Of a stretch of DNA of 48,865 nucleotides, positions 29,011-48,746 are shown in pieces. Origin of the DNA: a virus. Each line of letters starts with the position of its first letter. The stretch's first letter is position 1. Made by a program: the position numbers and the translations under genes. The DNA lies in the IMG/VR virus record IMGVR_UViG_3300017960_000507, positions 1-48,865 of that record; one strand, written 5' to 3'. The notes beneath the pieces are model-generated. The model saw only the letters and a program-made list of their open reading frames with translations. It was not told the origin of the DNA and made no database searches.

Positions 29011-29012
29011 AA

Positions 29013-33602: not shown

Positions 33603-33841
33603 AAGTACAAAGAGAAACTATTGAAAAGGTTTTGATTTTCCTTGAGCTTTTCTGCGTGATCATTCTCGCTATCAGCGCTTTGAAGATTATTTTCTACCTA
33701 TTCATGATTCCAAACAGCCTTGATATGTTGGAAACGACCAGAGCAGAAGCTTTTGCTGAAATCAAAGTACAAGCAATGGTAATGGTTGCGTTTGCTATTG
33801 CTGCAATGTATACACATGGTTCGCGGAAGGATTTGTTGTGA
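33599..33841 (+). CDS. Small membrane protein with two helices
   Basis: 80 residues. Hydrophobic segments lie at about 11-36 (L-I-F-L-E-L-F-C-V-I-I-L-A-I) and 58-70 (M-V-M-V-A-F-A-I-A-A). The connecting loop is polar. The size fits a holin or exclusion protein, but there is no lysis gene nearby. ATGA and GTGA overlaps link it to both neighbours. Confidence 0.78.
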   Translation: MKVQRETIEKVLIFLELFCVIILAISALKIIFYLFMIPNSLDMLETTRAEAFAEIKVQAMVMVAFAIAAMYTHGSRKDLL

Positions 33842-34056
33842 GACAATTGAGCAAAAAGGTTTGCAAAGGTTGCCGCAAACAATATGGCTGGGCGTGGTAT
33901 GAAGACATTGAAAGGGCTTGGAACAAGGAAGGGAAAATAGTTTGTCCTGCGACCTTAAGGCCAGACGACCCTCATGCAAATGATATTTCTGAAGGACCGC
34001 CTGAGTTTTGTCCGTTTGTTCTCGAACACTTGTTGGAATTGCAAGATGTTAAGTAG
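33838..34056 (+). CDS. LEH-family protein with GTG start, opens the dense array
   Basis: 72 residues: Cys9/Cys12, W-A-W, Cys36 followed by Pro, and F-C-P-F-V-L-E-H at 57-64. GTG 33838 (GTGA overlap) adds two residues before L-S-K-K-V-C. From here to 36127 nearly every gene is an LEH member, coupled end to start. Confidence 0.88.
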   Translation: MRQLSKKVCKGCRKQYGWAWYEDIERAWNKEGKIVCPATLRPDDPHANDISEGPPEFCPFVLEHLLELQDVK

Positions 34057-34249
34057 AAAGATTTGCATACAATGTCAAGGGGATGATTGGTTCGACTATG
34101 ACGACATGTGTTGGAGGAAGCATGAAACGGTTCATTGTATGCCCCAAAGGAGAACGCTTGAAAATTATTTTGGAACAAATGTAAAAGGGCCAGCTCCAGA
34201 TTGGTGTCCTTTTGCTCTTGAACATTTGATGGAAGCTCAAAGATGTTAA
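34046..34249 (+). CDS. LEH-family Cys-rich protein
   Basis: 67 residues: Cys7/Cys10, an acidic D-D-W-F-D-Y-D-D stretch, Cys22, Cys31, and W-C-P-F-A-L-E-H at 53-60. The 11-base overlap with the gene above is canonical. Confidence 0.88.
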   Translation: MLSRKICIQCQGDDWFDYDDMCWRKHETVHCMPQRRTLENYFGTNVKGPAPDWCPFALEHLMEAQRC

Positions 34250-34440
34250 GCAAGGAGATTTGTAAAAAGTGCATAAATTCAGAAGACAAATGGGACAAAT
34301 ATGATGAAAAGAATTGGAAGAAATTTTGCGAAGTAATTTGTCTGATAGGCCACGAAGGACGCCCTGATAATATAAGCATAAAAGAGGAACCGCCGGAGAA
34401 TTGTCCTTTTACTTTGGAACATATTATGGAAACGCAATGA
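34243..34440 (+). CDS. LEH-family protein, near-consensus
   Basis: 65 residues: M-L-S-K-E-I-C-K-K-C start, Cys29, Cys33, P-P-E-N-C-P-F-T-L-E-H at 50-60 and I-M-E-T-Q at the very end. It has no extra tail after M-E-T-Q, and the next ATG (ATGA) is the last base step, so it shows the minimal cassette. Confidence 0.89.
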   Translation: MLSKEICKKCINSEDKWDKYDEKNWKKFCEVICLIGHEGRPDNISIKEEPPENCPFTLEHIMETQ

Positions 34441-34721
34441 AACGCTGCTGTGCAACATGTGACATGTTTCCAACTTGCGCTATTGCAAGAAACTATATAA
34501 AACATACTGACTGGACGAGGGTCGGCGGAAGTTGTCTTGAATGGTCAAACAAAGATTTTTTTGAAAGCGCTGAGCGGAATATAGAAATTTGCAAGAAGTG
34601 TGAAGAAACGAAAATGACTTACAATTGCTGGATGCATTGCTACGTTGCTGACTTGGATACTATTCCGCGTGATTGTCCGTTTTTCCTTGAGCAATTTATG
34701 AGTAAGAAAAATGCTGAGTAA
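34437..34721 (+). CDS. Cys-rich leader domain fused to an LEH module
   Basis: 94 residues. Residues 4-36 hold C-C-A-T-C, Cys14 and G-S-C-L-E-W, a C-x2-C...C...C-x-E-W pattern common in small phage and bacterial proteins. The LEH part has Cys52/Cys55, Cys64, Cys68 and D-C-P-F-F-L-E-Q at 79-86. Two separate metal sites are likely. Confidence 0.85.
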   Translation: MKRCCATCDMFPTCAIARNYIKHTDWTRVGGSCLEWSNKDFFESAERNIEICKKCEETKMTYNCWMHCYVADLDTIPRDCPFFLEQFMSKKNAE

Positions 34722-34947
34722 AAAGATATGTCAGAAGTGTTACGAATATTACGATTGGCCTTGGGAAAGCGCACAAAACAATTTGATGGTTCCAAGAGAC
34801 GATGGTCCACCGTGGCGCACAAGTCAAAGAATAATGTGTCTTTCAAGAGAAACGTTGCCACTACATATTGCGCGGACAAACGAGCCGCCACCGGAATGGT
34901 GCCCGTTTTCTTTGGAACATGTTTTGGAAATGCAAGATGGATCATGA
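34711..34947 (+). CDS. LEH-family Cys-rich protein
   Basis: 78 residues: Cys7/Cys10, an aromatic Y-E-Y-Y-D-W-P-W, Cys43, P-P-P-E-W-C-P-F-S-L-E-H at 59-70. The middle is longer than in its neighbours and contains a D-D-G-P-P-W loop. Confidence 0.88.
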   Translation: MLSKKICQKCYEYYDWPWESAQNNLMVPRDDGPPWRTSQRIMCLSRETLPLHIARTNEPPPEWCPFSLEHVLEMQDGS

Positions 34948-35113
34948 CAAAATTGATAGAAAGATTTGCGGAAGCTGTAAAAATGTGTTCAAACTTCATC
35001 GTGGAGGCATGGAAATTGCCATTTCGTGTCCGGTGTTTGAAAAGCATTGTCCATATGCTCTTGAATTGTTGATGCTGAAAGAGAAAAGAGATGCTGAGCA
35101 AAGACATCTGTAA
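34937..35113 (+). CDS. Short LEH-family protein with LEL variant
   Basis: 58 residues: Cys11/Cys14, Cys31 followed by Pro, and H-C-P-Y-A-L-E-L at 37-44. Only six residues separate the last two Cys, the shortest spacing in the array. The His of LEH is replaced by Leu. The tail D-A-E-Q-R-H-L overlaps the next gene by 23 bases. Confidence 0.84.
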   Translation: MDHDKIDRKICGSCKNVFKLHRGGMEIAISCPVFEKHCPYALELLMLKEKRDAEQRHL

Positions 35114-35402
35114 ACGCTGTTACGAACGGCAAGGTTATATTTGGGAAGTGTCGTGGATCAGGGGAGTCAGATTTCCTCGACATCATGATGCTGAAAAATA
35201 TTGGAAGAAAGAGAGTGCGGTCAAGTGTCCGTGTCGCCACAAAGATGACCCAGAAGGATACAAGCCCATTGCAGGGAAATTTAGCATTGAAGGAAATCCA
35301 CCAGAGCATTGCGTTTATGCTATGGAGCATATTATAGCTACAGGGCATTATGACCCCAAGTTGCCAATTGAGAATATACCACCAATGGAAGCAGAATGGT
35401 AA
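35091..35402 (+). CDS. LEH-family protein with MEH variant and long tail
   Basis: 103 residues: Cys7/Cys10, basic aromatic middle, C-P-C at 46-48, H-C-V-Y-A-M-E-H at 73-80. The tail of 23 residues is Pro-rich (I-P-P-M-E) and lacks M-E-T-Q, so translation of the next gene depends on a TAATG junction instead. Confidence 0.85.
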   Translation: MLSKDICKRCYERQGYIWEVSWIRGVRFPRHHDAEKYWKKESAVKCPCRHKDDPEGYKPIAGKFSIEGNPPEHCVYAMEHIIATGHYDPKLPIENIPPMEAEW

Positions 35403-35728
35403 TGTACGACCCTTGGAAACAACACGAGTGTCATTATTGCAAAGAGAAGTTTCACGACCTTCAAAAACATTATGACGAATGCGAAATCAGGCGCAAAGCC
35501 TATTGCGCGGAAGCATGTAAGAATTGTTTTGCGGAAAAGACAGTAATAAAACCGCAAACAAAAGCTACAAAGGAAAGCTTGCTCTTTATACTTATTTGGA
35601 ATCCAATGTTGCTTGGAATCCCTTACGGATGTCCGGCTTGTAATCATTTGACCAATTGGGAACCGCCAAAACATTGCGTGCTTTCAAAACGGTTTGTTCA
35701 AAAGCTTTTGGCTGAGAGAAAGAAATGA
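35402..35728 (+). CDS. Zinc-finger protein with degenerate LEH end
   Basis: 108 residues. A CHYC knuckle at 10-13 followed by H-D-L-Q-K-H and Cys27 fits a C2HC-type finger. Cys39/Cys42, C-P-A-C at 77-80 and P-P-K-H-C-V-L-S-K at 88-96 follow; the last resembles the pre-motif P-P-x-x-C of LEH proteins without the LEH. ATG 35402 is chosen for the TAATG overlap. Confidence 0.78.
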   Translation: MYDPWKQHECHYCKEKFHDLQKHYDECEIRRKAYCAEACKNCFAEKTVIKPQTKATKESLLFILIWNPMLLGIPYGCPACNHLTNWEPPKHCVLSKRFVQKLLAERKK

Positions 35729-35943
35729 CGTATCAAATACCAAAACAAGTTCATCTTGATTTGGACTTGTTGATTTGTTACAGCAAATGTAAGCGCAGTT
35801 TGAAAGTGCGGCCATTTTCAGGAGTGATTTGTGTTGAAGATTCTTCAACTTCTTATTACATGGAATATGATGAGCCGTTTACAAACCCGCCAAAGTGGTG
35901 TCCATTTGTTCTCGAACATTTGTTGAGCAAACAAAATGGATAG
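35725..35943 (+). CDS. LEH-family protein with CxxxC knuckle
   Basis: 72 residues: a 17-residue leader, C-Y-S-K-C at 18-22, Cys36, and P-P-K-W-C-P-F-V-L-E-H at 55-65. The leader has an I-P-K-Q-V-H-L-D-L-D piece instead of M-L-S-K. The tail L-L-S-K-Q-N-G overlaps the next start by 8 bases. Confidence 0.86.
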   Translation: MTYQIPKQVHLDLDLLICYSKCKRSLKVRPFSGVICVEDSSTSYYMEYDEPFTNPPKWCPFVLEHLLSKQNG

Positions 35944-36127
35944 ATGTTATTTTTGCGATTGTGAATCTGAAAAGCAAGTATGCGGTTTTTGGTTATGCCC
36001 GCATTGTGAGAAGAAATACAGCGCGTCATACTTGAGGCGTTTGTATCATGCGCTTTGGCCTTGGAGATTCGATGCTGTTAAGTGTAGCTTCCTTTTGGAA
36101 CACTTGATGGAGACTCAAAATGACTGA
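35936..36127 (+). CDS. LEH-family protein with double knuckle
   Basis: 63 residues: C-Y-F-C-D-C at 4-9, Cys16, C-P-H-C at 21-24, then a 25-residue gap and K-C-S-F-L-L-E-H at 49-56. Ser replaces Pro in the motif. The first 24 residues look like a complete small zinc ribbon. It is the last gene before the MBL-fold hydrolase. Confidence 0.85.
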   Translation: MDRCYFCDCESEKQVCGFWLCPHCEKKYSASYLRRLYHALWPWRFDAVKCSFLLEHLMETQND

Positions 36128-36998
36128 TAGAATGGACGCTACGGACATTGGCATGAAAAGGTTTCCATTGTCTAACAAAGGCGACTTGGACATCTGTTTC
36201 ATAGGCGTGGGAGCTGCTTTTGCAAAGACGATGCACCAAACCAACTTTATCATCGTCAAAGGCAACAGGCATATCCTCGTTGATTTTGGGATGACTGGCC
36301 CTCGGGCGTTGCGAGAATCTGCTTTCCTTGACCCTTCTGACATTGAATTGCTGTTGCCAACTCATTCGCACGCAGACCACGTTGGGGGTATTGAATGTCT
36401 TGCGTTGATGAATCGTTACGTTGGCCGCAGGCATCTGAAGAAGCGCAAGCTACGTATGATTGTCACTGAAGCGTATCAGAACACGCTTTGGGATCAAACG
36501 CTACGCGGTGGTCTTGAGTGGAACGAGATGGATGATAATTCCGGTCAGAAGTTGGACTTCACCGACTTCTTCGACGTCATTCGTCCAACGTGGAAGAAGA
36601 AGCAACCACGCGAGATTTTTGAGGTTGAGATGGACACGGGTCTTGGTACAAAACTCAAGATTGAGCTTTTCCGCACGAAACATATTCCAGAACAATCTGG
36701 CTCGTGGGAAGAGTCATTCATCAGCTACGGGCTGTTTATTGATGACCGCATTTTCATTTCAGGCGATACACGTTTTGACCCGGAACTCGTCGAGATGTAT
36801 GGCGACAGGTCAGAAGCGATGTTTCATGATGTGCAGTTCTTTCCGGGAGCCGTACACGCTCCGTTGGCTGATATCAAAACGTTGCCGGGAAAGTACAAGA
36901 GCAAGATGATGCTCATACATTACGCGGATAATTGGAAAGAACAAGACATCACAGACTTTGCGGGGTTTGCTCGCGAAGGACAAGCTTATAGGTTTTGA
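36120..36998 (+). CDS. MBL-fold hydrolase, RNase Z/Apyc1-like
   Basis: 292 residues. The metallo-beta-lactamase motif H-S-H-A-D-H-V-G-G lies at 82-90; before it are I-G-V-G-A-A-F and N-F-I-I-V with I-L-V-D-F-G. Later I-S-G-D-T-R-F-D and L-I-H-Y-A-D give further ligands. The L-W-D-Q-T-L-R-G-G-L piece resembles, from memory, phage MBL phosphodiesterases of the anti-Pycsar Apyc1 type, which degrade cyclic nucleotides. tRNase Z or another phosphodiesterase are alternatives. ATG 36120 overlaps the LEH gene above by 8 bases. Confidence 0.86.
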   Translation: MTDRMDATDIGMKRFPLSNKGDLDICFIGVGAAFAKTMHQTNFIIVKGNRHILVDFGMTGPRALRESAFLDPSDIELLLPTHSHADHVGGIECLALMNRYVGRRHLKKRKLRMIVTEAYQNTLWDQTLRGGLEWNEMDDNSGQKLDFTDFFDVIRPTWKKKQPREIFEVEMDTGLGTKLKIELFRTKHIPEQSGSWEESFISYGLFIDDRIFISGDTRFDPELVEMYGDRSEAMFHDVQFFPGAVHAPLADIKTLPGKYKSKMMLIHYADNWKEQDITDFAGFAREGQAYRF

Positions 36999-37000
36999 AA

Positions 37001-37225
37001 ATGCTGAGTAAAGAAGTCTGTAAAAGATGTTTCAATGCTGAAAAGGAAATATTGCGACATTGGAACGTCGAATATGACGAATTCAACTGGAAACACGGAA
37101 GCGTCAATTGCCGAGCCGCAATACACCGTTGGATAGGGGATGCAGGAGTCAGTATTCAAGGTAATCCACCGCCTGAATGCCCGTTTCCTTTGGAACATTT
37201 GTTGGATACGCAGGATGCTGAATAA
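37001..37225 (+). CDS. LEH-family Cys-rich protein
   Basis: 74 residues: Cys7/Cys10, R-H-W-N-V-E-Y-D-E-F-N-W-K-H-G middle, Cys37, P-P-P-E-C-P-F-P-L-E-H at 56-66. Pro within the motif (F-P-L) is unusual. It restarts the array two bases after the MBL gene. Confidence 0.88.
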   Translation: MLSKEVCKRCFNAEKEILRHWNVEYDEFNWKHGSVNCRAAIHRWIGDAGVSIQGNPPPECPFPLEHLLDTQDAE

Positions 37226-37421
37226 AGAGATTTGTATGCAATGTGTTGAGAAAAGCGAACATATGCTGCCTCCGGGTTGGCGCGGACTGGACGAAGAAAT
37301 CTGGCGCAAGTGGAAGTCAGTGCGGTGCGATGCTGCGGGCGGGTGGTATGAATACAAAAAGAAGCCGCCAAAGAATTGCCCTTATCTCCTTGAGCATCTG
37401 ATGAAAAGACAAAAATGCTGA
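37215..37421 (+). CDS. LEH-family Cys-rich protein
   Basis: 68 residues: Cys7/Cys10, basic W-R-K-W-K-S-V-R-C middle (Cys38), P-P-K-N-C-P-Y-L-L-E-H at 51-61 and tail M-K-R-Q-K-C. The G-W-R-G-L-D-E-E-I-W stretch is a good example of the x-W before the third Cys. Confidence 0.88.
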   Translation: MLNKEICMQCVEKSEHMLPPGWRGLDEEIWRKWKSVRCDAAGGWYEYKKKPPKNCPYLLEHLMKRQKC

Positions 37422-37741
37422 GCATGAAAGTTTGTAGAAAATGCCGAGACTGCGATGATGATTCAAGCGAGATGATTCATCGTTGGTTTCATTTTGGCCG
37501 GTCGCCCTGCGGGGACGACACATATGGGCCACCTAATGTGAAAGAGTGTGATTATCATTTGGAGCATTTGATAGCTATGCAAAACATGTTTCCAAAATTT
37601 GAACTCAACAAAACGGTTTGTAAGAAATGTGAAGTCAAAGATTGCACTGTGTTCAAATGGCCAACCAGCTTGAGGCCAGAGGTAATGCATGTGCTTTGTG
37701 ATTATCATTTGGAGCATTTGGTGAGTGGAAATGTTAAGTAA
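37415..37741 (+). CDS. Fused dimer of two LEH modules
   Basis: 108 residues with two complete modules in one frame. First: Cys7/Cys10 (plus Cys13), Cys32, C-D-Y-H-L-E-H at 45-51. Second: L-N-K-T-V-C-K-K-C (Cys69/Cys72), Cys77, C-D-Y-H-L-E-H at 95-101. The two C-terminal motifs share a 23-base identical DNA stretch. The junction reads Q-N-M-F-P-K-F-E-L-N-K, so the stop and restart of a normal pair were lost or never formed. Confidence 0.88.
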   Translation: MLSMKVCRKCRDCDDDSSEMIHRWFHFGRSPCGDDTYGPPNVKECDYHLEHLIAMQNMFPKFELNKTVCKKCEVKDCTVFKWPTSLRPEVMHVLCDYHLEHLVSGNVK

Positions 37742-37940
37742 AAAGGTTTGCATAGCTTGTATCAAAAGGGGTCTTGGTTTTGATATTTCCACAGACAGCC
37801 TTGAAAAAGACTGTTACGAAGAATGGTGGTTAAAAACGCCCAAATGGTATTGCTATATCTGCGAACGGTGGATTTTTCGGAAAGGAAAACCGCCGAAGGA
37901 ATGCGAATACATTCTGGAGCACTTAGTAGATGTTAAGTAA
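37731..37940 (+). CDS. LEH-family protein with second knuckle
   Basis: 69 residues: Cys7/Cys10 (C-I-A-C), Cys28, C-Y-I-C at 41-44, and P-P-K-E-C-E-Y-I-L-E-H at 54-64. Glu replaces Pro in the motif. It ends L-V-D-V-K rather than M-E-T-Q, yet keeps the 11-base junction. Confidence 0.87.
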   Translation: MLSKKVCIACIKRGLGFDISTDSLEKDCYEEWWLKTPKWYCYICERWIFRKGKPPKECEYILEHLVDVK

Positions 37941-38160
37941 AGAGATTTGTAAACAATGCTGCAACGAACAACAGCGACGTTCCAAAATTCGCAATTGGAA
38001 CGTGTGGAGCAACAGCGATGAAACACGATGGGCAAACGGTGAAATCTATTGTCGGTTTTTCTTTTGGAAGATTCCGCTTACGTTCCATACAACAACGTCG
38101 TCGCCTAAACACTGCCCTTATCATCTTGAGCACTTGATGGAGTCGCAAGTTGTTGAGTAA
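37930..38160 (+). CDS. LEH-family protein with basic aromatic middle
   Basis: 76 residues: C-K-Q-C-C at 7-11, basic Q-Q-R-R-S-K-I-R-N-W, Cys41, and H-C-P-Y-H-L-E-H at 61-68. T-T-T-S-S before the motif replaces the usual Pro-Pro. The last codons include the TTG start of the next gene. Confidence 0.87.
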   Translation: MLSKEICKQCCNEQQRRSKIRNWNVWSNSDETRWANGEIYCRFFFWKIPLTFHTTTSSPKHCPYHLEHLMESQVVE

Positions 38161-38410
38161 AGCGGTTTGTAAATATTGCCGCAGCAAATATAGCCCTGTT
38201 TGGAAGTGGCAGGCGTGTGATGATCTGAGTTGGCGTACTTTTGAAATGATCAGATGTCCAGAAATGAAGTTGAGGGGTGGCTTGTCAAACAACGGAACGT
38301 GGGCATGGCCAAAAACGCCCATTGACAAAATACCGGATGAGTGCCCTTATCATTTGGAGCACCTGATGGAAAACAGTCGGCCAAAGCCAAAGCGGATTGA
38401 ACGATGCTAA
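38150..38410 (+). CDS. LEH-family protein with TTG start
   Basis: 86 residues: Cys7/Cys10, Cys23, Cys36 followed by Pro, and E-C-P-Y-H-L-E-H at 64-71, then a basic tail (R-P-K-P-K-R-I-E-R-C). TTG 38150 gives M-L-S-K-A-V-C; the expected ATG has become TTG while GGAG is kept 9 bases upstream. Confidence 0.86.
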   Translation: MLSKAVCKYCRSKYSPVWKWQACDDLSWRTFEMIRCPEMKLRGGLSNNGTWAWPKTPIDKIPDECPYHLEHLMENSRPKPKRIERC

Positions 38411-38604
38411 ACAAAAAGGCTTGTAAAACTTGTCGCGGAGATTTTTGGGATAAGCACGACGAATATTGGTGGCAAACAGGCCACATGACTTGTCGGTATA
38501 TTCCCAAAGGCAATTGTAACAATTTGATTGATATTGATAAGCCTCCGCCAGAGAAGTGCGAATACTGGCTGGAGCATTTCATGGAGAATCAAGGTGCTCA
38601 GTAA
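38404..38604 (+). CDS. LEH-family Cys-rich protein
   Basis: 66 residues: Cys7/Cys10, E-Y-W-W middle, Cys30, Cys38, and P-P-P-E-K-C-E-Y-W-L-E-H at 47-58. The tail F-M-E-N-Q-G-A-Q overlaps the next GTG by 11 bases. Confidence 0.88.
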   Translation: MLNKKACKTCRGDFWDKHDEYWWQTGHMTCRYIPKGNCNNLIDIDKPPPEKCEYWLEHFMENQGAQ

Positions 38605-38800
38605 ACAAGTTTGCAAACATTGTAAGAATTCTACTGTTCATAATAAATATGGCGAAGCTTCTAACCGTATGTGGGTGTTTGATAAAATAGTTTGGTGTCC
38701 ACTTAGAAAAAAAGGCGGTGCGCGACATACAGATGTTGAAAAACCTCCTCCAGAGTGGTGTCAATATCAACTTGAGCACTTGATGAAAACACAAAGATGA
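38594..38800 (+). CDS. LEH-family protein with GTG start
   Basis: 68 residues: Cys7/Cys10, Cys35 followed by Pro, P-P-P-E-W-C-Q-Y-Q-L-E-H at 51-62 (Gln for Pro). GTG 38594 gives M-L-S-K-Q-V-C-K-H-C. It ends M-K-T-Q-R with an ATGA junction into the HNH endonuclease gene. Confidence 0.87.
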   Translation: MLSKQVCKHCKNSTVHNKYGEASNRMWVFDKIVWCPLRKKGGARHTDVEKPPPEWCQYQLEHLMKTQR

Positions 38801-39651
38801 TTCCAGAGAAAGATAGAAAACGATTCTTATCAAAAGTCAAGCCTCAAGGGGAATGTTTGATCTGGACTGGGAGGCCCAATCACTTTTTCTTTCAAAGCGA
38901 AAGAGGGAACAGCGTAATCAGAAGACCAAGGAATGTTCTTTTTGAACTTGTAACAGGTAAAAAAATCAATAACAGAAAGTTTTTCATCACGTGTAAGAAT
39001 TCAAATTGCATACGACCAGAGCATATGCGTTTTGGCAACGAAAATATTGAAAAAGATTTTTGGGAAAAGGTTGAAAAGGAAAATGATTGTTGGGTTTGGA
39101 CTGATAAGACGATGAGATTCATACGGATCGGGGGGAAAACTTCGCGCCCCAGCCGGATTGCTTGGGAAATGTTGCGCGGCCCTATTCCAAAGAATTATAT
39201 TCTGACACAGGTATGTGGGAACAAAAGATGTGTAAGGCCAGATCATTTGCTATGTTGTACACGGTCTGATTTCTTAAAGTTGTTTGTCCCTAACATTGGA
39301 GCGCCGAAGAAGCCAAGCACGAAAATGGAACGGCTGCAAAAATCAAAGTATAAACGCCTTTGTGAATCAGAAATCCGTGAAGTTTATGAGATGAGAAAAG
39401 CAGGAAAATCACAAAAGGAAATTGCTGATCATTTGAGCGTGACTGAAGCGGCTGTTAGTAGGTGGTGCAGAAAACTCGGTTTCAAAAAGCAAGATATCAA
39501 ATTGACGCCAAGAAAAATGAGGACTATTCAGAAACACTGGCAGGCTGGAAAGACTGCCCGTTGGATTGCCAAACGGGTGAACCTTTCGAATTGCACGATC
39601 TATTTTGCGCTTAAAAAATTGAAAGCAGAAGGAAAGATCAGTGTTGAGTAA
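38797..39651 (+). CDS. HNH homing-type endonuclease with two HNH motifs and HTH domains
   Basis: 284 residues. The N-terminal part carries two related zinc/HNH units (C-K-N-S-N-C-I-R-P-E-H-M and C-G-N-K-R-C-V-R-P-D-H-L), as in AP2/HNH-type phage endonucleases. The C-terminal part has helix-turn-helix pieces (S-Q-K-E-I-A-D-H-L-S-V then A-A-V-S-R-W-C, and a second one, A-R-W-I-A-K-R-V). It is a free-standing mobile endonuclease by family. It sits exactly between two LEH genes; its last codons (S-V-E-stop) recreate the family junction. Confidence 0.88.
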   Translation: MIPEKDRKRFLSKVKPQGECLIWTGRPNHFFFQSERGNSVIRRPRNVLFELVTGKKINNRKFFITCKNSNCIRPEHMRFGNENIEKDFWEKVEKENDCWVWTDKTMRFIRIGGKTSRPSRIAWEMLRGPIPKNYILTQVCGNKRCVRPDHLLCCTRSDFLKLFVPNIGAPKKPSTKMERLQKSKYKRLCESEIREVYEMRKAGKSQKEIADHLSVTEAAVSRWCRKLGFKKQDIKLTPRKMRTIQKHWQAGKTARWIAKRVNLSNCTIYFALKKLKAEGKISVE

Positions 39652-40920: not shown

Positions 40921-40932
40921 GGAGACAACTTC

Positions 40933-42621: not shown

Positions 42622-42650
42622 ATTTTTCTCACTTCTTCTCAATAAAAACC

Positions 42651-42679
42651 GCAAAAATCAAGATTTTTAGTTGTATAAT
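42651..42679 (+). promoter_or_regulatory. Phage promoter copy 6 (GCAAAA-17-TATAAT)
   Basis: GCAAAA at 42651-42656, a 17-base spacer ending TTG, and TATAAT at 42674-42679. About 60 bases around it (pyrimidine-rich T/C stretch, A-run, GCAAAAATCAAG) also recur at promoter copy 7. The next gene starts at 42709 after TGAGG. Confidence 0.78.
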
Positions 42680-42708
42680 TAACCAGTGAAAATATGTTTT
42701 GAGGTCGT

Positions 42709-42975
<267 letters not shown>

Positions 42976-42981
42976 AAGAAA

Positions 42982-43254
42982 ATGTTGAGTAAAGAAATTT
43001 GTATCAAGTGCAGTAAAATGGTTTTTCAAAACCCGTGGAAAGAAGTTGCGGTGATGTGTATCAAGTCGGGCCGGTTGTTGAAAATATTTTATGACGACCC
43101 GCCAGATGATTGCGATTTCTTGCTTGAACATCTGATGGAAAATCAAGATAAGACACCGCCAGAAGTGAAAGTAAGTTCTCAAAAAACGCATCCGTTGTTT
43201 TCTCATCCGATCTTCTCAAAACGACGGCGCAGAAGAAGGCCCAATGTTAAGTGA
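42982..43254 (+). CDS. LEH-family protein with Arg-rich tail (RRRRRR subtype)
   Basis: 90 residues: Cys7/Cys10, F-Q-N-P-W, Cys26, D-C-D-F-L-L-E-H at 43-50, M-E-N-Q, then about 35 residues that end in K-R-R-R-R-R-R. The gene at 45574 has the same layout and nearly the same middle. The basic tail could bind nucleic acid. Confidence 0.88.
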   Translation: MLSKEICIKCSKMVFQNPWKEVAVMCIKSGRLLKIFYDDPPDDCDFLLEHLMENQDKTPPEVKVSSQKTHPLFSHPIFSKRRRRRRPNVK

Positions 43255-43438
43255 AGTTGTTTGTAAACGATGCATGGACAGCGAGACAAAGCGTAGAAGG
43301 TACAAATGGCTTGCTTGCTTTCGCGTGCGGAAAGATTTTCCAGTGCTCAAGCCTTTTTACAGTTGTCCCGATCAAGAGATTCCATCGTGGTGCCCTTATG
43401 TTTTAGAGCATGTATTGGAAACCAAGAATGTTGAATAA
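43244..43438 (+). CDS. LEH-family Cys-rich protein
   Basis: 64 residues: Cys7/Cys10, basic K-R-R-R-Y-K-W, Cys25, Cys41 followed by Pro, and W-C-P-Y-V-L-E-H at 49-56. The 11-base junctions on both sides are canonical. Confidence 0.88.
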   Translation: MLSEVVCKRCMDSETKRRRYKWLACFRVRKDFPVLKPFYSCPDQEIPSWCPYVLEHVLETKNVE

Positions 43439-43619
43439 AGACATCTGTAAAAAATGCGTTGGAAAGCATTATCCAAAAGTGAGAGACATTGTGGATTCAT
43501 GGGAAAATCCTCGCATCCTTTCGCCTTGTCCGTTTGGCGGGTGGATTCATCCGTTCTTGTCTGCTCCCAAATGGTGTCCCTTTGTTTTGGAACACTTAAT
43601 GGAGTTGCAGAAACGTTGA
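43428..43619 (+). CDS. LEH-family Cys-rich protein
   Basis: 63 residues: Cys7/Cys10, Cys34 (C-P-F-G-G-W-I), W-C-P-F-V-L-E-H at 49-56, M-E-L-Q-K-R. The duplicated C-P-F (34-36 and 50-52) is notable. The following junction has lost its ATG. Confidence 0.87.
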   Translation: MLNKDICKKCVGKHYPKVRDIVDSWENPRILSPCPFGGWIHPFLSAPKWCPFVLEHLMELQKR

Positions 43620-43816
43620 GTAAAGAAATCTGCAAGCGGTGTATAAATAGAAAGTGTTTGGCTATGAAATGGTCAGACCTCGACGATTTGCTTTGGTTGG
43701 AGGGAGTTGTGATTTGCGGAATGTACCCTATGTCGCACAGTCTGTGGCCGATAAAATACAAACCGCCTGCTAACTGTAATTTTGCTCTTGAGCATTTGTT
43801 GGATGTACAGAAATGA
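43616..43816 (+). CDS. LEH-family protein with TTG (or ACG) start
   Basis: 66 residues counted from TTG 43616: Cys6/Cys9, Cys14, Cys34, P-P-A-N-C-N-F-A-L-E-H at 50-60. The family position for ATG holds ACG (43613-43615), one base from ATG, just before TTG. GGAG is 8 bases before the ACG and 11 before the TTG. A recent point mutation with fallback to TTG or ACG initiation explains this best. Confidence 0.83.
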   Translation: MSKEICKRCINRKCLAMKWSDLDDLLWLEGVVICGMYPMSHSLWPIKYKPPANCNFALEHLLDVQK

Positions 43817-44181
43817 TAATCAGCCGGCTAAAAGAAAATCATAAAGGGCGAAGAGTTGTCTATACTCCCCATCATAACCTGATAGAGTTTGGACGGATTT
43901 CCTCATGGAATGAAAAATTTGTCTTTGTATACTATGACGTTGGCCTTCATACGCAAGCGACAAGCCCAGAGGATTTGATCATGCTTGACAAAGGGATTTG
44001 CAAAAAATGTTTTGACAACAGGGTGAACAGCAAAGAGATAAAACCGCCACCTTTGGATTTCGACAAGCTTTGGGATAACGGATTAAGTTGGTGTCTCATG
44101 CTAAACGCAAGCGTGAACGCTGAAGTACCCAGACGATGCCCTTATGCTCTTGAGCATTTAATGGAAACGCAAAATGATTGA
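43813..44181 (+). CDS. Small beta-type domain fused to an LEH module
   Basis: 122 residues. The first 55 (V-V-Y-T-P-H-H then R-I-S-S-W-N-E-K-F-V-F-V-Y-Y and A-T-S-P-E-D-L) match a short conserved phage protein type. The module follows: Cys63/Cys66, Cys94, R-C-P-Y-A-L-E-H at 108-115. An internal ATG at 43981 (I-M-L-D-K-G-I-C) is exactly where a stand-alone member would begin, so both a fusion and an internal product are possible. Confidence 0.86.
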   Translation: MIISRLKENHKGRRVVYTPHHNLIEFGRISSWNEKFVFVYYDVGLHTQATSPEDLIMLDKGICKKCFDNRVNSKEIKPPPLDFDKLWDNGLSWCLMLNASVNAEVPRRCPYALEHLMETQND

Positions 44182-44371
44182 TGAATTCATATGCCGTCGA
44201 CATTGTCATCCTCATATGAATGATATGATAATGACGATTTATGAAGTTGAGATGTCTGGTTCAGATCGTGATTACAATGAATGGTTTTGTCCAAGGCTAA
44301 GAGTGCATTTGGAAAGTGATGGAAAAGCGCCGGTGGAATGTCCTTATTTTTTAGAGCACTTTGTGCAATAA
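44174..44371 (+). CDS. LEH-family protein with CxxHC knuckle
   Basis: 65 residues: Cys7, then H-C-H-P-H at 10-14 in place of the second knuckle Cys, Cys39 followed by Pro, E-C-P-Y-F-L-E-H at 55-62. Several His near the knuckle could take over as ligands. Ends F-V-Q, sharing one base with the next ATG. Confidence 0.85.
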   Translation: MIDEFICRRHCHPHMNDMIMTIYEVEMSGSDRDYNEWFCPRLRVHLESDGKAPVECPYFLEHFVQ

Positions 44372-44619
44372 TGCTAAACAAGAAAACATGCAATAGATGC
44401 TGGAAGAAAAGGATCAAACAAAAAGGTTGGACGGTAACGAGTATGATTGAGGGTATTGGCTTGTATATTCGCGGTGAACAGTATGGTGGTAAATATTTGT
44501 TCAAGCACTTTGGAATGTTGCCGTGCTGTTTGGAAGAAAAATTCAAGCCAGTAATAGAGCCGCCAAAAAAGTGCCCTTTTATTTTGGAGCACTTGATGGA
44601 AACGCAAAAGAACAAATGA
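44371..44619 (+). CDS. LEH-family protein with hydrophobic middle
   Basis: 82 residues: Cys7/Cys10, basic K-K-R-I-K-Q-K, a Gly/Ile-rich stretch (I-E-G-I-G-L-Y-I-R-G), C-C at 52-53, P-P-K-K-C-P-F-I-L-E-H at 64-74, M-E-T-Q-K-N-K. The middle resembles a beta hairpin. Confidence 0.87.
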   Translation: MLNKKTCNRCWKKRIKQKGWTVTSMIEGIGLYIRGEQYGGKYLFKHFGMLPCCLEEKFKPVIEPPKKCPFILEHLMETQKNK

Positions 44620-44795
44620 TCAGCAGAGAAGTCTGTAAACGATGTTGGATCAACAGCGGGGGCGAATGGGATTCCGATGGTCACTTCAAGTGGCATTGTG
44701 GTAAAAATTGGAATACGACAATCAGCGTGGAAGACAAAACTATTCCGTACGATTGCCCATACAGTCTCGAACACGTAGTGAAAACAAAATGCTAA
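44616..44795 (+). CDS. Short LEH-family protein
   Basis: 59 residues: Cys7/Cys10, W-D-S-D-G-H-F-K-W-H-C (Cys28), D-C-P-Y-S-L-E-H at 46-53. It starts by ATGA overlap with M-I-S-R-E-V-C-K-R-C. The tail V-V-K-T-K-C overlaps the next gene by 7 bases. Confidence 0.87.
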   Translation: MISREVCKRCWINSGGEWDSDGHFKWHCGKNWNTTISVEDKTIPYDCPYSLEHVVKTKC

Positions 44796-44986
44796 CAAAC
44801 ATGGACATCTGTAAAAAGAAATGCAAAGAGAAATGCGAGACTTACTTAGCAATTGAACATATAAGTCTCATGAGGGCGACGGGACGAATTGCGCGATATT
44901 TTGACCCATTGGCTTCTCCTTTCAGAGTCCCTGATGATTGCCCATTCAGTTTAGAGCATCTTATGAAGGTTCAAAATGCTGAGTAA
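44789..44986 (+). CDS. LEH-family protein with CxxxC knuckle
   Basis: 65 residues: C-K-K-K-C-K-E-K-C at 8-16 gives three evenly spaced Cys; no Cys in the helical middle; D-C-P-F-S-L-E-H at 50-57. Similar in knuckle type to the gene at 21667, and neither has a middle C-P. Confidence 0.86.
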   Translation: MLTNMDICKKKCKEKCETYLAIEHISLMRATGRIARYFDPLASPFRVPDDCPFSLEHLMKVQNAE

Positions 44987-45200
44987 AAGCATCTGTCAAA
45001 AATGTTGGAGGGAATATTTGAATTCAGATAATCCGCATCATGATTGTTGGAACGAAGCTGATGATTACGATTGGGAGCATGGAGCAGTTTTCTGTCCATA
45101 TTCTCCAGAAGGATTTTCAAACTTTGTAAATATTGATGTGAAAGTATCAACATGGTGCCCTTATATTCTTGAGCAACTTATGGAAACTCAAAATGCTTAG
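44976..45200 (+). CDS. LEH-family protein with LEQ variant
   Basis: 74 residues: Cys7/Cys10, N-P-H-H-D-C (Cys24), acidic D-D-Y-D-W-E-H, Cys40 followed by Pro, W-C-P-Y-I-L-E-Q at 60-67, M-E-T-Q-N-A. The middle is His- and Asp-rich. Confidence 0.88.
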   Translation: MLSKSICQKCWREYLNSDNPHHDCWNEADDYDWEHGAVFCPYSPEGFSNFVNIDVKVSTWCPYILEQLMETQNA

Positions 45201-45375
45201 CAGAAAAATCTGTGAACGATGCAAAAAGTATTCAGCCCTTTTAGCAATAGATGGTTCAGAAGAAACAAGGTTGTGGCGTTGTGGTCGATGGGGCCAAGTC
45301 AACAAGCAGGATAGAATACCTGTGTCTTGCGAGTATGAAGCTGAACATGTGGTGGAAACACAAAATGCTGAGTAA
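45193..45375 (+). CDS. LEH-family protein with AEH variant
   Basis: 60 residues: Cys7/Cys10, Cys30 after L-W-R, S-C-E-Y-E-A-E-H at 45-52. Ala replaces Leu in the motif while Glu and His are kept. Tail V-E-T-Q-N-A-E gives the 11-base junction. Confidence 0.86.
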   Translation: MLSRKICERCKKYSALLAIDGSEETRLWRCGRWGQVNKQDRIPVSCEYEAEHVVETQNAE

Positions 45376-45580
45376 AACAGTTTGTAAACAATGCATCAAT
45401 AACTCGCTGGATAGAAAGGGTAGGTGGAGGCGTTGGCATGAAACAAACTGGAAAGACGGCGTTGTGTGGTGCGGGGTTGTAAACCGGGGATCAAGTTGGT
45501 TGTTTCATGGAAAAGATGCGCCACCTTGTAAATGCCCTTATGGGCTTGAACACATTGTAGGAACGCAAAAGAAATGTTGA
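45365..45580 (+). CDS. LEH-family Cys-rich protein
   Basis: 71 residues: Cys7/Cys10, basic W-R-R-W-H-E-T-N-W-K-D-G, Cys36, Cys55, K-C-P-Y-G-L-E-H at 56-63. Cys55 replaces a residue near the usual Pro-Pro. The tail I-V-G-T-Q-K-K-C overlaps the next start by 7 bases. Confidence 0.88.
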   Translation: MLSKTVCKQCINNSLDRKGRWRRWHETNWKDGVVWCGVVNRGSSWLFHGKDAPPCKCPYGLEHIVGTQKKC

Positions 45581-45843
45581 GCGAACACATATGTTTGAAA
45601 TGCAGTCAAACGGCTTTTCAAAACCCGTGGAATAACGTCGCGGTAATATGCGTCAAGTCAGGCCGTTTGTTGAAATTGCTTTATGATGATCCACCAAACG
45701 ACTGCGATTTCTTGCTTGAACATCTTATGGAGAATCAAAACAAAGTGCCGCCAGAAGTTAAAGCTGGGACAACGAGAACGAATCCATTATACTATCGTCC
45801 AGCGCCCTCAAGACGACGCCGGAGAAGGGGACTGGATAGATGA
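45574..45843 (+). CDS. LEH-family protein with Arg-rich tail (copy 2)
   Basis: 89 residues: Cys7/Cys10, F-Q-N-P-W, Cys26, D-C-D-F-L-L-E-H at 43-50, M-E-N-Q, then a tail ending R-R-R-R-R-R-G. The match to the gene at 42982 runs through the middle (V-K-S-G-R-L-L-K) and into the tail (P-P-E-V-K), so this is a duplicate about 2.6 kb away. Confidence 0.88.
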   Translation: MLSEHICLKCSQTAFQNPWNNVAVICVKSGRLLKLLYDDPPNDCDFLLEHLMENQNKVPPEVKAGTTRTNPLYYRPAPSRRRRRRGLDR

Positions 45844-45845
45844 TA

Positions 45846-45872
45846 TATGTTGGATACTCAAAATGTTGATTG
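45846..45872 (+). pseudogene. C-terminal scar of an LEH gene
   Basis: The short frame M-L-D-T-Q-N-V-D followed by TGA equals the last residues of a family member (L-L-D-T-Q-N type). No upstream part remains. It overlaps the ATG at 45863. The scar sits where a ribosome-binding signal for the next gene is expected. Confidence 0.5.
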
Positions 45873-46039
45873 AAGATATCTGCAAGCAATGCAAATGGCG
45901 GATGACACATTTTGATGTTTGCAAGATTGAATTTTGTAGAACAGGAGCAGATCGCAAAATTTTGTCAATGCGAGAAATCAAAAAGAAAACGCCTCGTAAT
46001 TGCCCTTATTATTTGGAGCATTTACTCGTGGAGATGTAA
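45863..46039 (+). CDS. Short LEH-family protein
   Basis: 58 residues: Cys7/Cys10, Cys20, Cys25, N-C-P-Y-Y-L-E-H at 46-53, ending L-L-V-E-M. It follows the scar. The start M-L-I-E-D-I-C-K-Q-C has Ile and Glu in place of Ser-Lys. Confidence 0.86.
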   Translation: MLIEDICKQCKWRMTHFDVCKIEFCRTGADRKILSMREIKKKTPRNCPYYLEHLLVEM

Positions 46040-46041
46040 TA

Positions 46042-46242
46042 GTGCTGAACAAAACGATATGTGACAGGTGTGAGTTTCGGGTTAATGGGTTCCACTATCC
46101 AGCAAAACCGTTGGATTGGCATTGCGATAGAGCTATCAAACAAAAAGATGGGAACATGAGATGGCCCAACGGCAGAGAAGAACTGCCGCCGAATTGCCCT
46201 TATTATTTGGAGCATGTAATTTTTGGAGGGAACAATGGCTAA
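46042..46242 (+). CDS. LEH-family protein with GTG start
   Basis: 66 residues: Cys7/Cys10, P-L-D-W-H-C (Cys28), P-P-N-C-P-Y-Y-L-E-H at 49-58, then V-I-F-G-G-N-N-G. GTG 46042 gives M-L-N-K-T-I-C-D-R-C. Its last codons hold the GGAGGG site of the Nudix gene that follows. Confidence 0.86.
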   Translation: MLNKTICDRCEFRVNGFHYPAKPLDWHCDRAIKQKDGNMRWPNGREELPPNCPYYLEHVIFGGNNG

Positions 46243-46669
46243 GACGAAATTTGTTGTTGGCTTTTACTTTGATATGTTCCAAAAAAAGCCATCCGTTCTT
46301 CTTATAAAAAAGAAACGACCACAATGGCAGGCAGGACTTTACAATGGTATCGGAGGGCATATCGAAGAAGGAGAAACGCCACTTCAAGCAATGATACGCG
46401 AGTTCAAAGAAGAAACAGATGTTCATGAAGAAAACTGGATTCATAAAATAACTATCAACAGTCCTAAATGGATTTTGCATGTCTTCGCCGTCATCCAAGG
46501 TGATTCAAAAAAACCTAAAACGATGACAGATGAAGAACTCAGATTCGTTCCAGTTCAAGAACTCTATTCTATGCCGCTTGTCTATAATATAACGTGGCTT
46601 GTTCCCATAATGCTTGACGCCACCATCGTCAAACCGTTCTCCTTTGAGTGCGAATTATATGGAGAATGA
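46235..46669 (+). CDS. Nudix hydrolase, MutT-like
   Basis: 144 residues. The Nudix box is G-G-H-I-E-E-G-E-T-P-L-Q-A-M then R-E-F-K-E-E-T-D; the position usually Gly is Asp. N-G-I-G-G-H and V-G-F-Y-F before it suit a MutT/diadenosine-type member. The substrate could be a nucleoside triphosphate or another nucleoside diphosphate derivative. ATG 46235 follows GGAGGG by 4 bases. It interrupts the LEH array. Confidence 0.86.
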   Translation: MAKTKFVVGFYFDMFQKKPSVLLIKKKRPQWQAGLYNGIGGHIEEGETPLQAMIREFKEETDVHEENWIHKITINSPKWILHVFAVIQGDSKKPKTMTDEELRFVPVQELYSMPLVYNITWLVPIMLDATIVKPFSFECELYGE

Positions 46670-46672
46670 ACA

Positions 46673-46912
46673 ATGCTGAGCAAAAAAGCTTGTAAACTTT
46701 GCATGGATAGGTTTGGTCCTAAAACTACATTTGGGGTGGGCTGGCAACAAAACGGAGCAAAAGACGAACAGCGCTGGAAAGACAACATGGTAATGTGTCC
46801 ATGGTATTTTCACAAAGGTCATCCAGAGAAGCAACGGATGCGAGACATCAACAAACCACCGCCTGATTTTTGTGGTTATACTTTGGAGCATGTAGTGCAA
46901 AATGCTAAGTAA
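46673..46912 (+). CDS. LEH-family protein, FGPK subtype (copy 2)
   Basis: 79 residues: Cys7/Cys10, F-G-P-K at 14-17, W-K-D-N-M-V-M-C-P (Cys42), R-D-I-N-K-P-P-P, and F-C-G-Y-T-L-E-H at 66-73. Relative of the gene at 27799. Its last codons hold the canonical junction into the interrupted copy that follows. Confidence 0.88.
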   Translation: MLSKKACKLCMDRFGPKTTFGVGWQQNGAKDEQRWKDNMVMCPWYFHKGHPEKQRMRDINKPPPDFCGYTLEHVVQNAK

Positions 46913-47147
46913 AACTATCTGCAAAAAATGCTGAGAAAAAGAACATACGCCACTCAAATGGATCAAGCAACATCGAGACACCGGATGTCCTGAAATGTTT
47001 TGGGAACGCAAAGAAGCACCGTGTCCAATTACTCACCGATGGTTCAATTGGGGTGGATTGGCTCCTTTTCCGAGTATTGATGGTTTCGCGCCTGCTCGTT
47101 GTCCCTACAGCCTTGAGCACTTGATAGAAAGTCAAAATGTTGAGTGA
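46902..47147 (+). pseudogene. LEH gene interrupted by an in-frame TGA
   Basis: The frame starts M-L-S-K-T-I-C-K-K-C and meets TGA at 46932-46934. It then stays open for 70 codons with all family features: D-T-G-C-P, E-A-P-C-P, and R-C-P-Y-S-L-E-H-L-I-E-S-Q-N-V-E. Only the stop is wrong. A recent nonsense mutation fits best; read-through or an assembly error cannot be excluded. TGA is a regular stop elsewhere here, so a changed code is unlikely. Confidence 0.8.
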
Positions 47148-47316
47148 AACTGTTTGTTACAGATGCAAAAAACAGAAGCCAGAATGGGAAAACCGTTGGG
47201 CCGCAAAAGGATATATTTGGTGCAAAAGGTTGGGCGTGTTGATTTGCAAACAGGGCAATCTCCCTACTGGCTGTCCTTATGAACTCGAACATCTTTTGGA
47301 AAATCAAAATGTTTAA
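47137..47316 (+). CDS. Short LEH-family protein
   Basis: 59 residues: M-L-S-E-T-V-C-Y-R-C (Cys7/Cys10), Cys29, Cys37, G-C-P-Y-E-L-E-H at 45-52, L-L-E-N-Q-N-V. The start overlaps the end of the interrupted copy by 11 bases, so it still has the family junction for its own translation. Confidence 0.86.
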   Translation: MLSETVCYRCKKQKPEWENRWAAKGYIWCKRLGVLICKQGNLPTGCPYELEHLLENQNV

Positions 47317-47506
47317 TGACGATGAAATCCAAAGAAAATGTTGCTCCAGTTTTCCAAAGGTAAAACAAGAGGAACTCAAAGAAGACCTTCTCAAGTACTG
47401 GGTGGAGTGCGAGAAATGCAATCAGAAAACAGATTGCTATGAAACCAAGTTCACTGCTGTTCTGACTTGGAATAACAACATGCTTGTGAAGAAAAATGCT
47501 AAGTAA
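47309..47506 (+). CDS. Small Cys-containing protein, not LEH family
   Basis: 65 residues: C-C at 11-12, C-E-K-C at 34-37 and Cys43, a knuckle with helical leader (E-E-L-K-E-D-L-L-K-Y). The LEH motif is absent. The start is set by the E-N-Q-N-V junction of the gene above; its tail K-K-N-A-K provides the next 11-base junction. Confidence 0.75.
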   Translation: MFNDDEIQRKCCSSFPKVKQEELKEDLLKYWVECEKCNQKTDCYETKFTAVLTWNNNMLVKKNAK

Positions 47507-47678
47507 ACGAATCTGCGTATCTTGCTGGGGCGGTAAAGGGTGGATTTCAGAAGACGATAACAGCGAATGGAGATGTCGTTATTCGGAATATAGATGGGTG
47601 AAAATCAAATACAAAGTTCCTGACAGCTGCCCTTTTATTCTTGAGCAACTGATGGATACACAGCATGTTTGTGAGTAA
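47496..47678 (+). CDS. Short LEH-family protein with LEQ variant
   Basis: 60 residues: Cys7/Cys10, G-G-K-G-W, Cys27, S-C-P-F-I-L-E-Q at 44-51, M-D-T-Q-H-V-C-E. The basic middle W-R-C-R-Y-S-E-Y-R-W-V-K precedes the motif. It overlaps the next gene by 14 bases. Confidence 0.87.
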   Translation: MLSKRICVSCWGGKGWISEDDNSEWRCRYSEYRWVKIKYKVPDSCPFILEQLMDTQHVCE

Positions 47679-47835
47679 AACTATCTGTCTAAGATGCAGA
47701 AAATCATACTGCTATATCTACAAATGGTGGCGTTGGAATCGGTATGATTGCAGTATAGTTAGAGCAAACCCGATGAAATGCGGTTATGAACTTGAGCATT
47801 TGATTGAGACTCAAAACAAAATGGAGATGAAATGA
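47665..47835 (+). CDS. Short LEH-family protein
   Basis: 56 residues: M-F-V-S-K-T-I-C-L-R-C (Cys8/Cys11), Cys16, strongly aromatic K-W-W-R-W-N-R-Y, Cys29, K-C-G-Y-E-L-E-H at 38-45. Gly replaces Pro in the motif. GGAT in the M-D-T codons may act as its ribosome-binding site. The ATGA junction couples it to the next gene. Confidence 0.84.
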   Translation: MFVSKTICLRCRKSYCYIYKWWRWNRYDCSIVRANPMKCGYELEHLIETQNKMEMK

Positions 47836-48227
47836 AACCAGTTGATTGGTCCACACAATGCGAAGCCTTGATACGTGGGACGAAACAGCGCTGTCCACAC
47901 AGATGCCGTTTCCAAATTCCAAACATTCTTGCTGGTCATTTTGTTATGGATAAAGAATACTTTGAGGTTTATGGCCGACCTGTTCATCTTTGCTATGGAC
48001 ACTGGAGGCACTGGCACGCAAGACAAAAACGTCTTCTGACCGTTGCGTTGATAGACGGGGGCTATCTGTCTGCTTACAATCATCATGCTTACGGATCAAT
48101 CGTTACGGCCCATGAGCGCATTGATTTTAAGCAGCCATCGTCACAGGTGCCAAAAGAATGGGGTGTTGATGAATGGAAAGGAAACGTTCCTGATCTTGTA
48201 AGGAAGGCGTTGAAGATTACGGCTTGA
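47832..48227 (+). CDS. Cys/His zinc-finger-type protein
   Basis: 131 residues. W-S-T-Q-C-E-A-L-I-R-G-T-K-Q-R-C-P at 6-22 with a later L-C-Y-G-H-W-R-H-W-H resembles the short DUF5763-like metal fold (C-x-A...G-x-x-C...C-x-x-H). The rest is mixed, with an Arg/Lys stretch. Not of LEH type. GGAG lies 5 bases before the ATG. Confidence 0.76.
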   Translation: MKPVDWSTQCEALIRGTKQRCPHRCRFQIPNILAGHFVMDKEYFEVYGRPVHLCYGHWRHWHARQKRLLTVALIDGGYLSAYNHHAYGSIVTAHERIDFKQPSSQVPKEWGVDEWKGNVPDLVRKALKITA

Positions 48228-48238
48228 CAGGATTCAAA

Positions 48239-48475
48239 ATGCTAAACAAAAGCATCTGTAGCAAATGTTATGAGCGTCACAATATCCCTTGGGAGGATAT
48301 TTACAGCGGAGTTTATCCTGATGAGCTTTGGGAGAAAGGGAAAGTCCGATGCCCGATTCCGGAGAAAGTTTGGGATAGGCGACCTGATAATGTTCCGATT
48401 TTCATAAGCAGATTTTCAAACAAGAAAGTTCCCGACCATTGCGAGTATTCTCTGGAGCACGTCATTGCCGAATAA
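48239..48475 (+). CDS. LEH-family Cys-rich protein
   Basis: 78 residues: Cys7/Cys10, acidic I-P-W-E-D-I-Y-S-G-V-Y-P-D-E-L-W, Cys38 followed by Pro, H-C-E-Y-S-L-E-H at 67-74, V-I-A-E. Glu replaces Pro in the motif. It is the last ordinary member in the window. Confidence 0.88.
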   Translation: MLNKSICSKCYERHNIPWEDIYSGVYPDELWEKGKVRCPIPEKVWDRRPDNVPIFISRFSNKKVPDHCEYSLEHVIAE

Positions 48476-48746
48476 GAAAGTCAAAAGGATCAGAGACAAA
48501 GCGGGCATGGCAGTTTTTATTGCGTTCAATAGACTGTACGAAGAGGGCGTAACATCGCCAAAAGATGAAACGGTGGAAGCAAGGGCCAAGATGTTGATGA
48601 AAAGATCAAGCGAAGACTTGAGAAGATTGATGTATGAATATTGCCGCAAGTGCATTGAAAATCCTTTGAGGGCGACGTTCTATTGCGATTTTCGAGGGAA
48701 AGCTAAATGCCCTTATTGTCTCGAACATCTGATGCAAAATCAATGA
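48465..48746 (+). CDS. Helical leader fused to an LEH module, TTG start
   Basis: 93 residues from TTG 48465: a 57-residue basic helical leader (V-K-R-I-R-D-K-A-G then S-S-E-D-L-R-R-L-M-Y-E-Y), then Cys60/Cys63, Cys74, C-P-Y-C-L-E-H at 82-88. GGAG precedes the TTG by 8 bases in the L-E-H codons of the gene above. The leader differs from all other fusions here. Confidence 0.84.
   Translation: MPNKKVKRIRDKAGMAVFIAFNRLYEEGVTSPKDETVEARAKMLMKRSSEDLRRLMYEYCRKCIENPLRATFYCDFRGKAKCPYCLEHLMQNQ

What the first reader, a model, noticed from the sequence alone, without database searches (positions are those of the whole stretch)
33838..48746. Conserved protein tail doubles as the next gene's ribosome-binding site
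At most junctions the codons for L-M-E-x-Q contain GGAG (Met-Glu read ATG-GAG) about 7-9 bases before the next start, and that start is often A-T-G-C-T-G-A-G-T-A-A, in which the upstream stop is out of frame. About two dozen junctions share exactly an 11-base overlap. Part of the protein motif may thus be kept because of its RNA role, which turns each gene into a self-sufficient cassette that can be inserted or moved in tandem.
Basis: seen in the sequence. Interest (0 to 1): 0.82.

Follow-up and report, generated by a model that had tools for sequence, protein, structure and literature searches.

The report
Gene tail encodes next gene's ribosome site
A virus (probably a bacteriophage) carries about ninety diverged copies of one small cysteine-rich gene in a row, and the conserved end of many copies also contains the weak ribosome-binding signal that starts the next gene; the trick is a known one in compact genomes, but its repeated fixed use in such a large new gene family is unusual.

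Summary
The window is a 48.9-kb virus fragment with about 156 small genes, all on the + strand. About 90 belong to one unknown Cys4 family (MLSK-x-I-C-x2-C…W…C…PPxxCP[FY]xLEHLMExQ). It fills the whole window, not only 33838-48746. In 54 of 94 tails the next start lies 4-14 bases after the first base of the LMExQ Glu codon, and in 30 it lies at exactly +10, before unrelated genes as well as family members. The signal is TGGA rather than GGAG. Synonymous codons are chosen for Shine-Dalgarno pairing where a start follows (z=-4.3 after removing near-duplicates) and not where none follows (z=+1.7). Where the start sits 9-12 bases further upstream, the signal moves to the earlier Leu-Glu pair (7/7 TGGAG versus 20/87). 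Operon-terminal members lose GGA. So the tail does double as a ribosome-binding site.

Three claims are weaker. The 11-base overlap follows from spacing plus the MLSK head and shows no codon constraint of its own. Genes outside the family also embed their neighbour's RBS. The mobile-cassette idea is only suggested. This is a known principle (translational coupling, RBS inside the upstream gene) in a striking new family.

The parts
375..48746 (+). Array of about 90 paralogous small Cys4 genes interspersed with unrelated small genes, all on the + strand
   Evidence: Iterated HMM: 92 domain hits at E<1e-3, none on the - strand; gene list
33838..34056 (+). Family gene; tail L-L-E-L-Q, next start (34046) at +10, 11-base overlap
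34046..34249 (+). Family gene; tail L-M-E-A-Q (TTGATGGAAGCTCAA), next start (34243) at +11, 7-base overlap
34243..34440 (+). Family gene; tail I-M-E-T-Q, next start (34437) at +8, 4-base overlap
45193..45375 (+). Family gene; tail V-V-E-T-Q written GTG GTG GAA ACA CAA, next start ATGCTGAGTAA at 45365 (+10), 11-base overlap
45353..45356 (+). TGGA (RBS core) in the tail of 45193-45375, 8 bases before ATG 45365
   Evidence: synonymous test
44976..45200 (+). Family gene used for the structure model (pLDDT 89.7); tail L-M-E-T-Q, next start at +10, 8-base overlap
20452..20456 (+). TGGAG in the Leu-Glu codons of the earlier LEQ motif; serves the start at 20464, which lies 12 bases nearer to the motif than usual (RBS moved with the start)
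46042..46242 (+). Family gene whose protein tail has diverged (V-I-F-G-G-N-N-G) but whose DNA still has GGAGG before the ATG at 46235
15196..15486 (+). Family gene with tail I-M-T-W-E-K; TGGGAG lies just before GTG 15411 of a CxxCxxCC-domain gene
42400..42621 (+). Operon-terminal family gene (no gene follows closely; putative promoter at 42671): tail L-M-K-S-Q, no GGA
48465..48746 (+). Operon-terminal, weak family member (putative promoter at 48839): tail L-M-Q-N-Q, no GGA
43813..44181 (+). Family domain fused after a known small phage domain; ortholog in another virus (L012/L025 9663-10037, 59% identity) keeps the +10 start although the next gene differs
42982..43254 (+). Duplicate of 45574-45843; both keep L-M-E-N-Q with no start at that spacing (protein-level constraint)

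Best explanation
The conserved C-terminal tail of this virus's Cys4 paralogues does two jobs. As protein it is the last helix of a small four-cysteine, probably metal-binding, domain. As mRNA its xTG-GA core, about 8 nt before the next start, is a weak Shine-Dalgarno site for the next gene of the polycistronic message. The next start lies inside the tail or the bases after it, so the upstream ribosome usually terminates within about 4-23 nt past the start it has to load. Initiation is therefore probably helped by translational coupling (termination-reinitiation or local unfolding). Shown here: position-specific synonymous selection for SD pairing, its loss where no start follows, and its shift when the start shifts. 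Inferred: actual ribosome binding, coupling, metal binding and protein function.
For: Codon-randomised tails with the amino acids kept: coupled tails mean dG -3.85 against -2.87±0.23, p=0.001; tails with no start near, tested at a pseudo-start at +10, -1.51 against -1.77, p=0.87; tails whose start lies at -2 to +1: -5.60 against -2.48±0.71 at the real site and no excess at +10. After removing near-duplicate tails: z=-4.3 (coupled), -3.7 (next gene in the family, start fixed by homology), +1.7 (no start). Sliding the start of the +10 set by -6, -9 or -12 abolishes the signal. TGGA at positions 8/9: 33/54 coupled, 6/33 uncoupled, p=1.3e-4; Val8 is GTG in 11/12 coupled versus 2/8 others, genome 23%. 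TGGAG at the earlier LE pair: 7/7 when the start is 9-12 nt upstream, 20/87 otherwise, p=8.7e-5; 6/6 versus 17/71 without near-duplicates. Protein-divergent tails that keep an SD: 46042 (GGAGG), 15196 (TGGGAG).
Against: SD pairing is weak (fam-to-fam mean -4.0 kcal/mol, at or below -4 in only 41%); about a quarter of coupled tails have no GGA in the SD window. Paralogues are not independent, so p-values are approximate. The host and its 16S tail are unknown; a canonical anti-SD was assumed. In the second virus only 3 of 6 family-to-next junctions have a well-placed GGA. No expression data.
Confidence: 0.82

Rival explanations
1. The tail is conserved for the protein alone; GGA before the next ATG is a by-product of the codons for (M/L/V)-(E/D).
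For: Glu/Asp remains in 16/40 uncoupled or otherwise-spaced tails; duplicates 42982/45574 keep LMENQ without a coupled start; LEH is conserved everywhere.
Against: Synonymous choice (GTG/TTG rather than other Val/Leu codons; TTG GAG at the earlier LE pair when the start is upstream) depends on where the start is.
Confidence: 0.1
2. The family consists of mobile gene cassettes. Each brings out-of-frame stops in its head (for the gene before it) and an RBS in its tail (for the gene after it), so it can be dropped in front of any start codon with little damage.
For: The +10 start occurs before 10 unrelated genes in the first classification (12 after reclassifying 21667 and 41115) as well as 18 family genes; ortholog 43813/L025:9663 keeps +10 with different next genes; two otherwise dissimilar virus fragments share only family genes; three relations of upstream gene to cassette (fusion, phase 1, phase 2) occur in comparable numbers.
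Against: No empty site found; no terminal repeats, integrase or target-site duplication identified; tail synonymous sites are mixed (at least eight Leu-Glu codon pairs), so no recent DNA-level exchange is visible; heads show no stop-specific codon constraint.
Confidence: 0.25
3. Nothing special: every gene in this genome has an RBS in the end of the gene before it, and the family merely has many members.
For: Non-family to non-family junctions also show SD-driven synonymous choice (-4.90 against -3.85, p=0.01) and stronger SDs; the principle is published (PMC2784483).
Against: It does not explain the recurring exact +10 position inside a conserved protein motif nor the shift to LEQ-GGAG.
Confidence: 0.35

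Closest known systems
RBS overlapping the end of the upstream coding sequence in co-directional gene pairs (Palleja et al. 2009, PMC2784483, citing Eyre-Walker; stop-codon adaptation GGTGA in fusellovirus SSV4)
   Same: SD sequence embedded in the upstream gene; codons or stops adapted to it
   Different: Here the site sits at a fixed place in a conserved protein motif of a roughly 90-member family, and moves with the start
Translational coupling by termination-reinitiation in overlapping gene pairs (Huber et al. 2019, PMC6728339; Brown and Wade 2025, PMC12548453)
   Same: Stop just downstream of the next start, short overlaps, weak or assisted initiation
   Different: At family junctions the dominant overlaps are 11, 7, 23 and 8 nt instead of the usual 4 and 1; set by the MLSK head; coupling itself not measured
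Small zinc-binding proteins of phages (general kind; no family matched)
   Same: Four conserved cysteines, mostly 55-100 residues
   Different: No Pfam, PHROG, PDB-sequence or fold match

Membership tests
SD-in-upstream-gene arrangement | SD-like sequence inside the upstream coding region at functional distance from the next start | tested here: met
   33/54 coupled tails TGGA; GGA anywhere in the SD window in 75% of 51 coupled tails
SD-in-upstream-gene arrangement | Upstream codon choice adapted to the SD | tested here: met
   Synonymous randomisation with position controls
Translational coupling by termination-reinitiation | Stop and start overlapping or very close | tested here: met
   Overlaps of 1-41 nt at most junctions
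Translational coupling by termination-reinitiation | Downstream translation depends on translation of the upstream gene | not testable with these tools
   Needs reporters or ribosome profiling
Mobile gene cassette | Precise presence/absence at otherwise conserved sites | not tested
   No syntenic relative found; L010/L011 are identical to the window, the L012 virus shares only family genes; the one relative search with a flanking gene found nothing
Mobile gene cassette | Recombination sites or integrase linked to the unit | tested here: inconclusive
   Repeat search shows mostly coding similarity at heads and tails; one HNH endonuclease gene at 38797-39651
Known zinc-finger families in Pfam | Profile match above cut-off | tested here: not met
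   No member of 36 reaches a meaningful E-value (best 0.025)

The most novel reading that the evidence does not exclude
A self-propagating gene format: a virus family in which each small gene carries its own upstream-terminating head (stops in both other frames within 11 nt) and its own downstream-initiating tail, so that copies can be inserted before any start codon. This would have allowed expansion to about 90 diversified paralogues filling an accessory, possibly counter-defence, region.
Probability: 0.2. Interest if true: 0.8.

Novelty: new variant of a known kind. Interest (0 to 1): 0.5.

Why it matters
It is a natural replicate experiment. Roughly ninety homologous tails, some with a start at +10, some with a start 9-12 bases further upstream and some with none, separate protein constraint from RNA constraint on the same codons. 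It also uncovers an undescribed, very strongly expanded virus gene family that makes up more than half of the genes in this fragment.

Tried and rejected
GGAG as the specific motif: rejected, Glu codon GAA/GAG is close to genome usage. The 11-base overlap as a selected unit: no significant AGT/AAT excess in overlapped heads; CTG at codon 2 is in excess (21 of about 57 against 9% genome-wide) but equally where there is no overlap; Ser3 is AGY in all but one head, which may be inertia because AGY and TCN are two steps apart. Recent recombination at junctions: not supported, synonymous sites in tails are mixed. Chance relatives discarded: L009, L013-L024 and L033-L043 do not encode the family; L030 and the SP-15 and Vibrio phage hits only match the N-terminal domain fused in 43813. 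Fold search: no significant match. Three genes missed by my own gene caller (starts near 15411, 21893, 41305) were added after the first test; results before and after are both given.

Full report
What is there. The window is a virus record of 48,865 bases, 42% GC, with about 156 small genes, all read on the + strand. An iterated profile finds 92 domain hits at E<1e-3 of one family, none on the other strand. The family has four nearly invariant cysteines, a conserved Trp, a head MLSK-x-(I/V)-C and a tail PPxxCP(F/Y)xLEHLMExQ. No member tested matches Pfam, PHROGs or PDB sequences in a meaningful way. A model with good confidence (pLDDT 89.7, pTM 0.78) has no fold match in PDB or BFVD. A tblastn search of sequenced phages with one member gives nothing. 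In IMG/VR it was found in two short contigs identical to the window over their shared part, one of which (L011/L029) extends 3.9 kb upstream with more copies, and in one other virus (L012/L025) with 7 copies by the first profile search. Apart from family genes, the two viruses share nothing detectable.

The junctions. Numbering the tail C0-P1-Y2-x3-L4-E5-H6-L7-M8-E9-x10-Q11, the next start lies at E9+10 in 30 of 94 tails and at +4 to +14 in 54. The +10 start precedes unrelated genes as well as family genes (10 and 18 in the first classification). The letters are TGGA (33/54), less often GGAG. Met, Val and Leu interchange at position 8, but as ATG, GTG and TTG.

Is it selected? I kept the amino acids and drew codons from the genome's own usage, then compared the best pairing to a canonical anti-SD (ACCUCCUU) in roughly the 4-19 nt before the start. 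Coupled tails pair better than random (p=0.001). Tails without a start, tested at a pseudo-start, do not (p=0.87). Tails with the start 9-12 nt further upstream pair strongly at that place and not at +10. Removing near-duplicate tails leaves z=-4.3, and z=-3.7 with starts fixed by homology alone. Shifting the start of the +10 set by 6-12 nt removes the effect. In the tails with an upstream start all seven write Leu4-Glu5 as (T/C)TG-GAG, against 20 of 87 elsewhere, although the residues are the same. This is the clearest single sign that the RNA is read.

Members without a downstream gene. The uncoupled tails have TGGA in 6/33. Family genes at the ends of transcription units, just before a recurring TTGTATAATT promoter-like site (42671, 48839, 28248), read LMKSQ, LMQNQ and FFENQ without GGA. 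The residues beside Glu tend to stay, so the protein has its own constraint. The duplicate pair 42982/45574 keeps LMENQ without a coupled start. Conversely 46042 and 15196 have lost the protein motif but keep GGAGG or TGGGAG before the next start.

The 11-base overlap. In ATG-CTG-AGT-AAA the two other frames stop at bases 5-7 and 9-11. When AGT is AGC, the second frame runs on to TGT-A(A/G) and gives 23. Overlaps of 11, 7, 8 and 23 are thus fixed by frame and head codons. Overlapped heads do not use AGT/AAT significantly more than other heads. Published overlap-length distributions are dominated by 4 and 1 nt (PMC3887535), so the 11-nt peak is unusual, but the head explains it.

How general? 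Junctions between non-family genes in the same window also show SD-driven codon choice and on average stronger SDs. An RBS within the upstream gene and codon or stop adaptation to it are known (PMC2784483), and so is coupling across short overlaps (PMC6728339, PMC12548453). What is special is the fixed position in a conserved protein motif, repeated in about ninety diverged paralogues.

The cassette idea. It is suggested by the fixed +10 start before unrelated genes, by the ortholog pair 43813/L025:9663 with different next genes at the same spacing, and by in-frame fusions near the head codon after unrelated domains (43813, 375, 13324). The free-standing version of the 43813 N-terminal domain exists in Bacillus phage SP-15 and a Vibrio phage. 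No empty site, repeat or integrase was found, so I hold it at 0.2-0.25.

Limits. Paralogues share ancestry, so p-values are approximate. My gene caller gave a small bonus to SD-like starts for non-family genes (family starts are set by homology). The host is unknown. In the second virus only three of six junctions carry a well-placed GGA.

Noticed in passing
L029 9763-9837 (- strand), upstream extension of the same virus: A tRNA gene with anticodon CTA (ARAGORN calls it Pyl; possibly an amber suppressor); 14 of 156 window genes end in TAG.
   Followed up: partly
window 36120-36998: Strong match to anti-Pycsar protein Apyc1 (Pfam PF23023, E=3.6e-32), a phage counter-defence enzyme, inside the array.
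   Followed up: no
window 2125, 9220, 28248, 32853, 42671, 48839 (18584 with one mismatch): Recurrent + strand TTGTATAATT, mostly in gaps between genes, some with similar flanks; probably the virus's promoters and operon borders.
   Followed up: partly
window family heads, codon 2: Leu codon CTG in 21 of about 57 heads against 9% genome-wide, also where no gene overlaps; Ser3 almost always AGY. Unexplained.
   Followed up: partly
window 375-728, 13324-14139, 19964-20290, 43813-44181; L025 17540-18388: Family domain fused to other domains or extensions: an HTH domain, a small phage domain, and in L025 a protein that looks like a methyltransferase (by eye, not tested).
   Followed up: partly
window 41305-41448, 21893-22120: Probable overlapping genes read from the +10 start in another frame than a long extension of the family gene.
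   Followed up: partly
window 42925-42971: Run of AAGC repeats (SKQASKQAS) at the end of a gene.
   Followed up: no
window 16441-16959, 23362-24075: dTDP-4-dehydrorhamnose 3,5-epimerase and nucleotidyl transferase genes: possible sugar modification by the virus.
   Followed up: no
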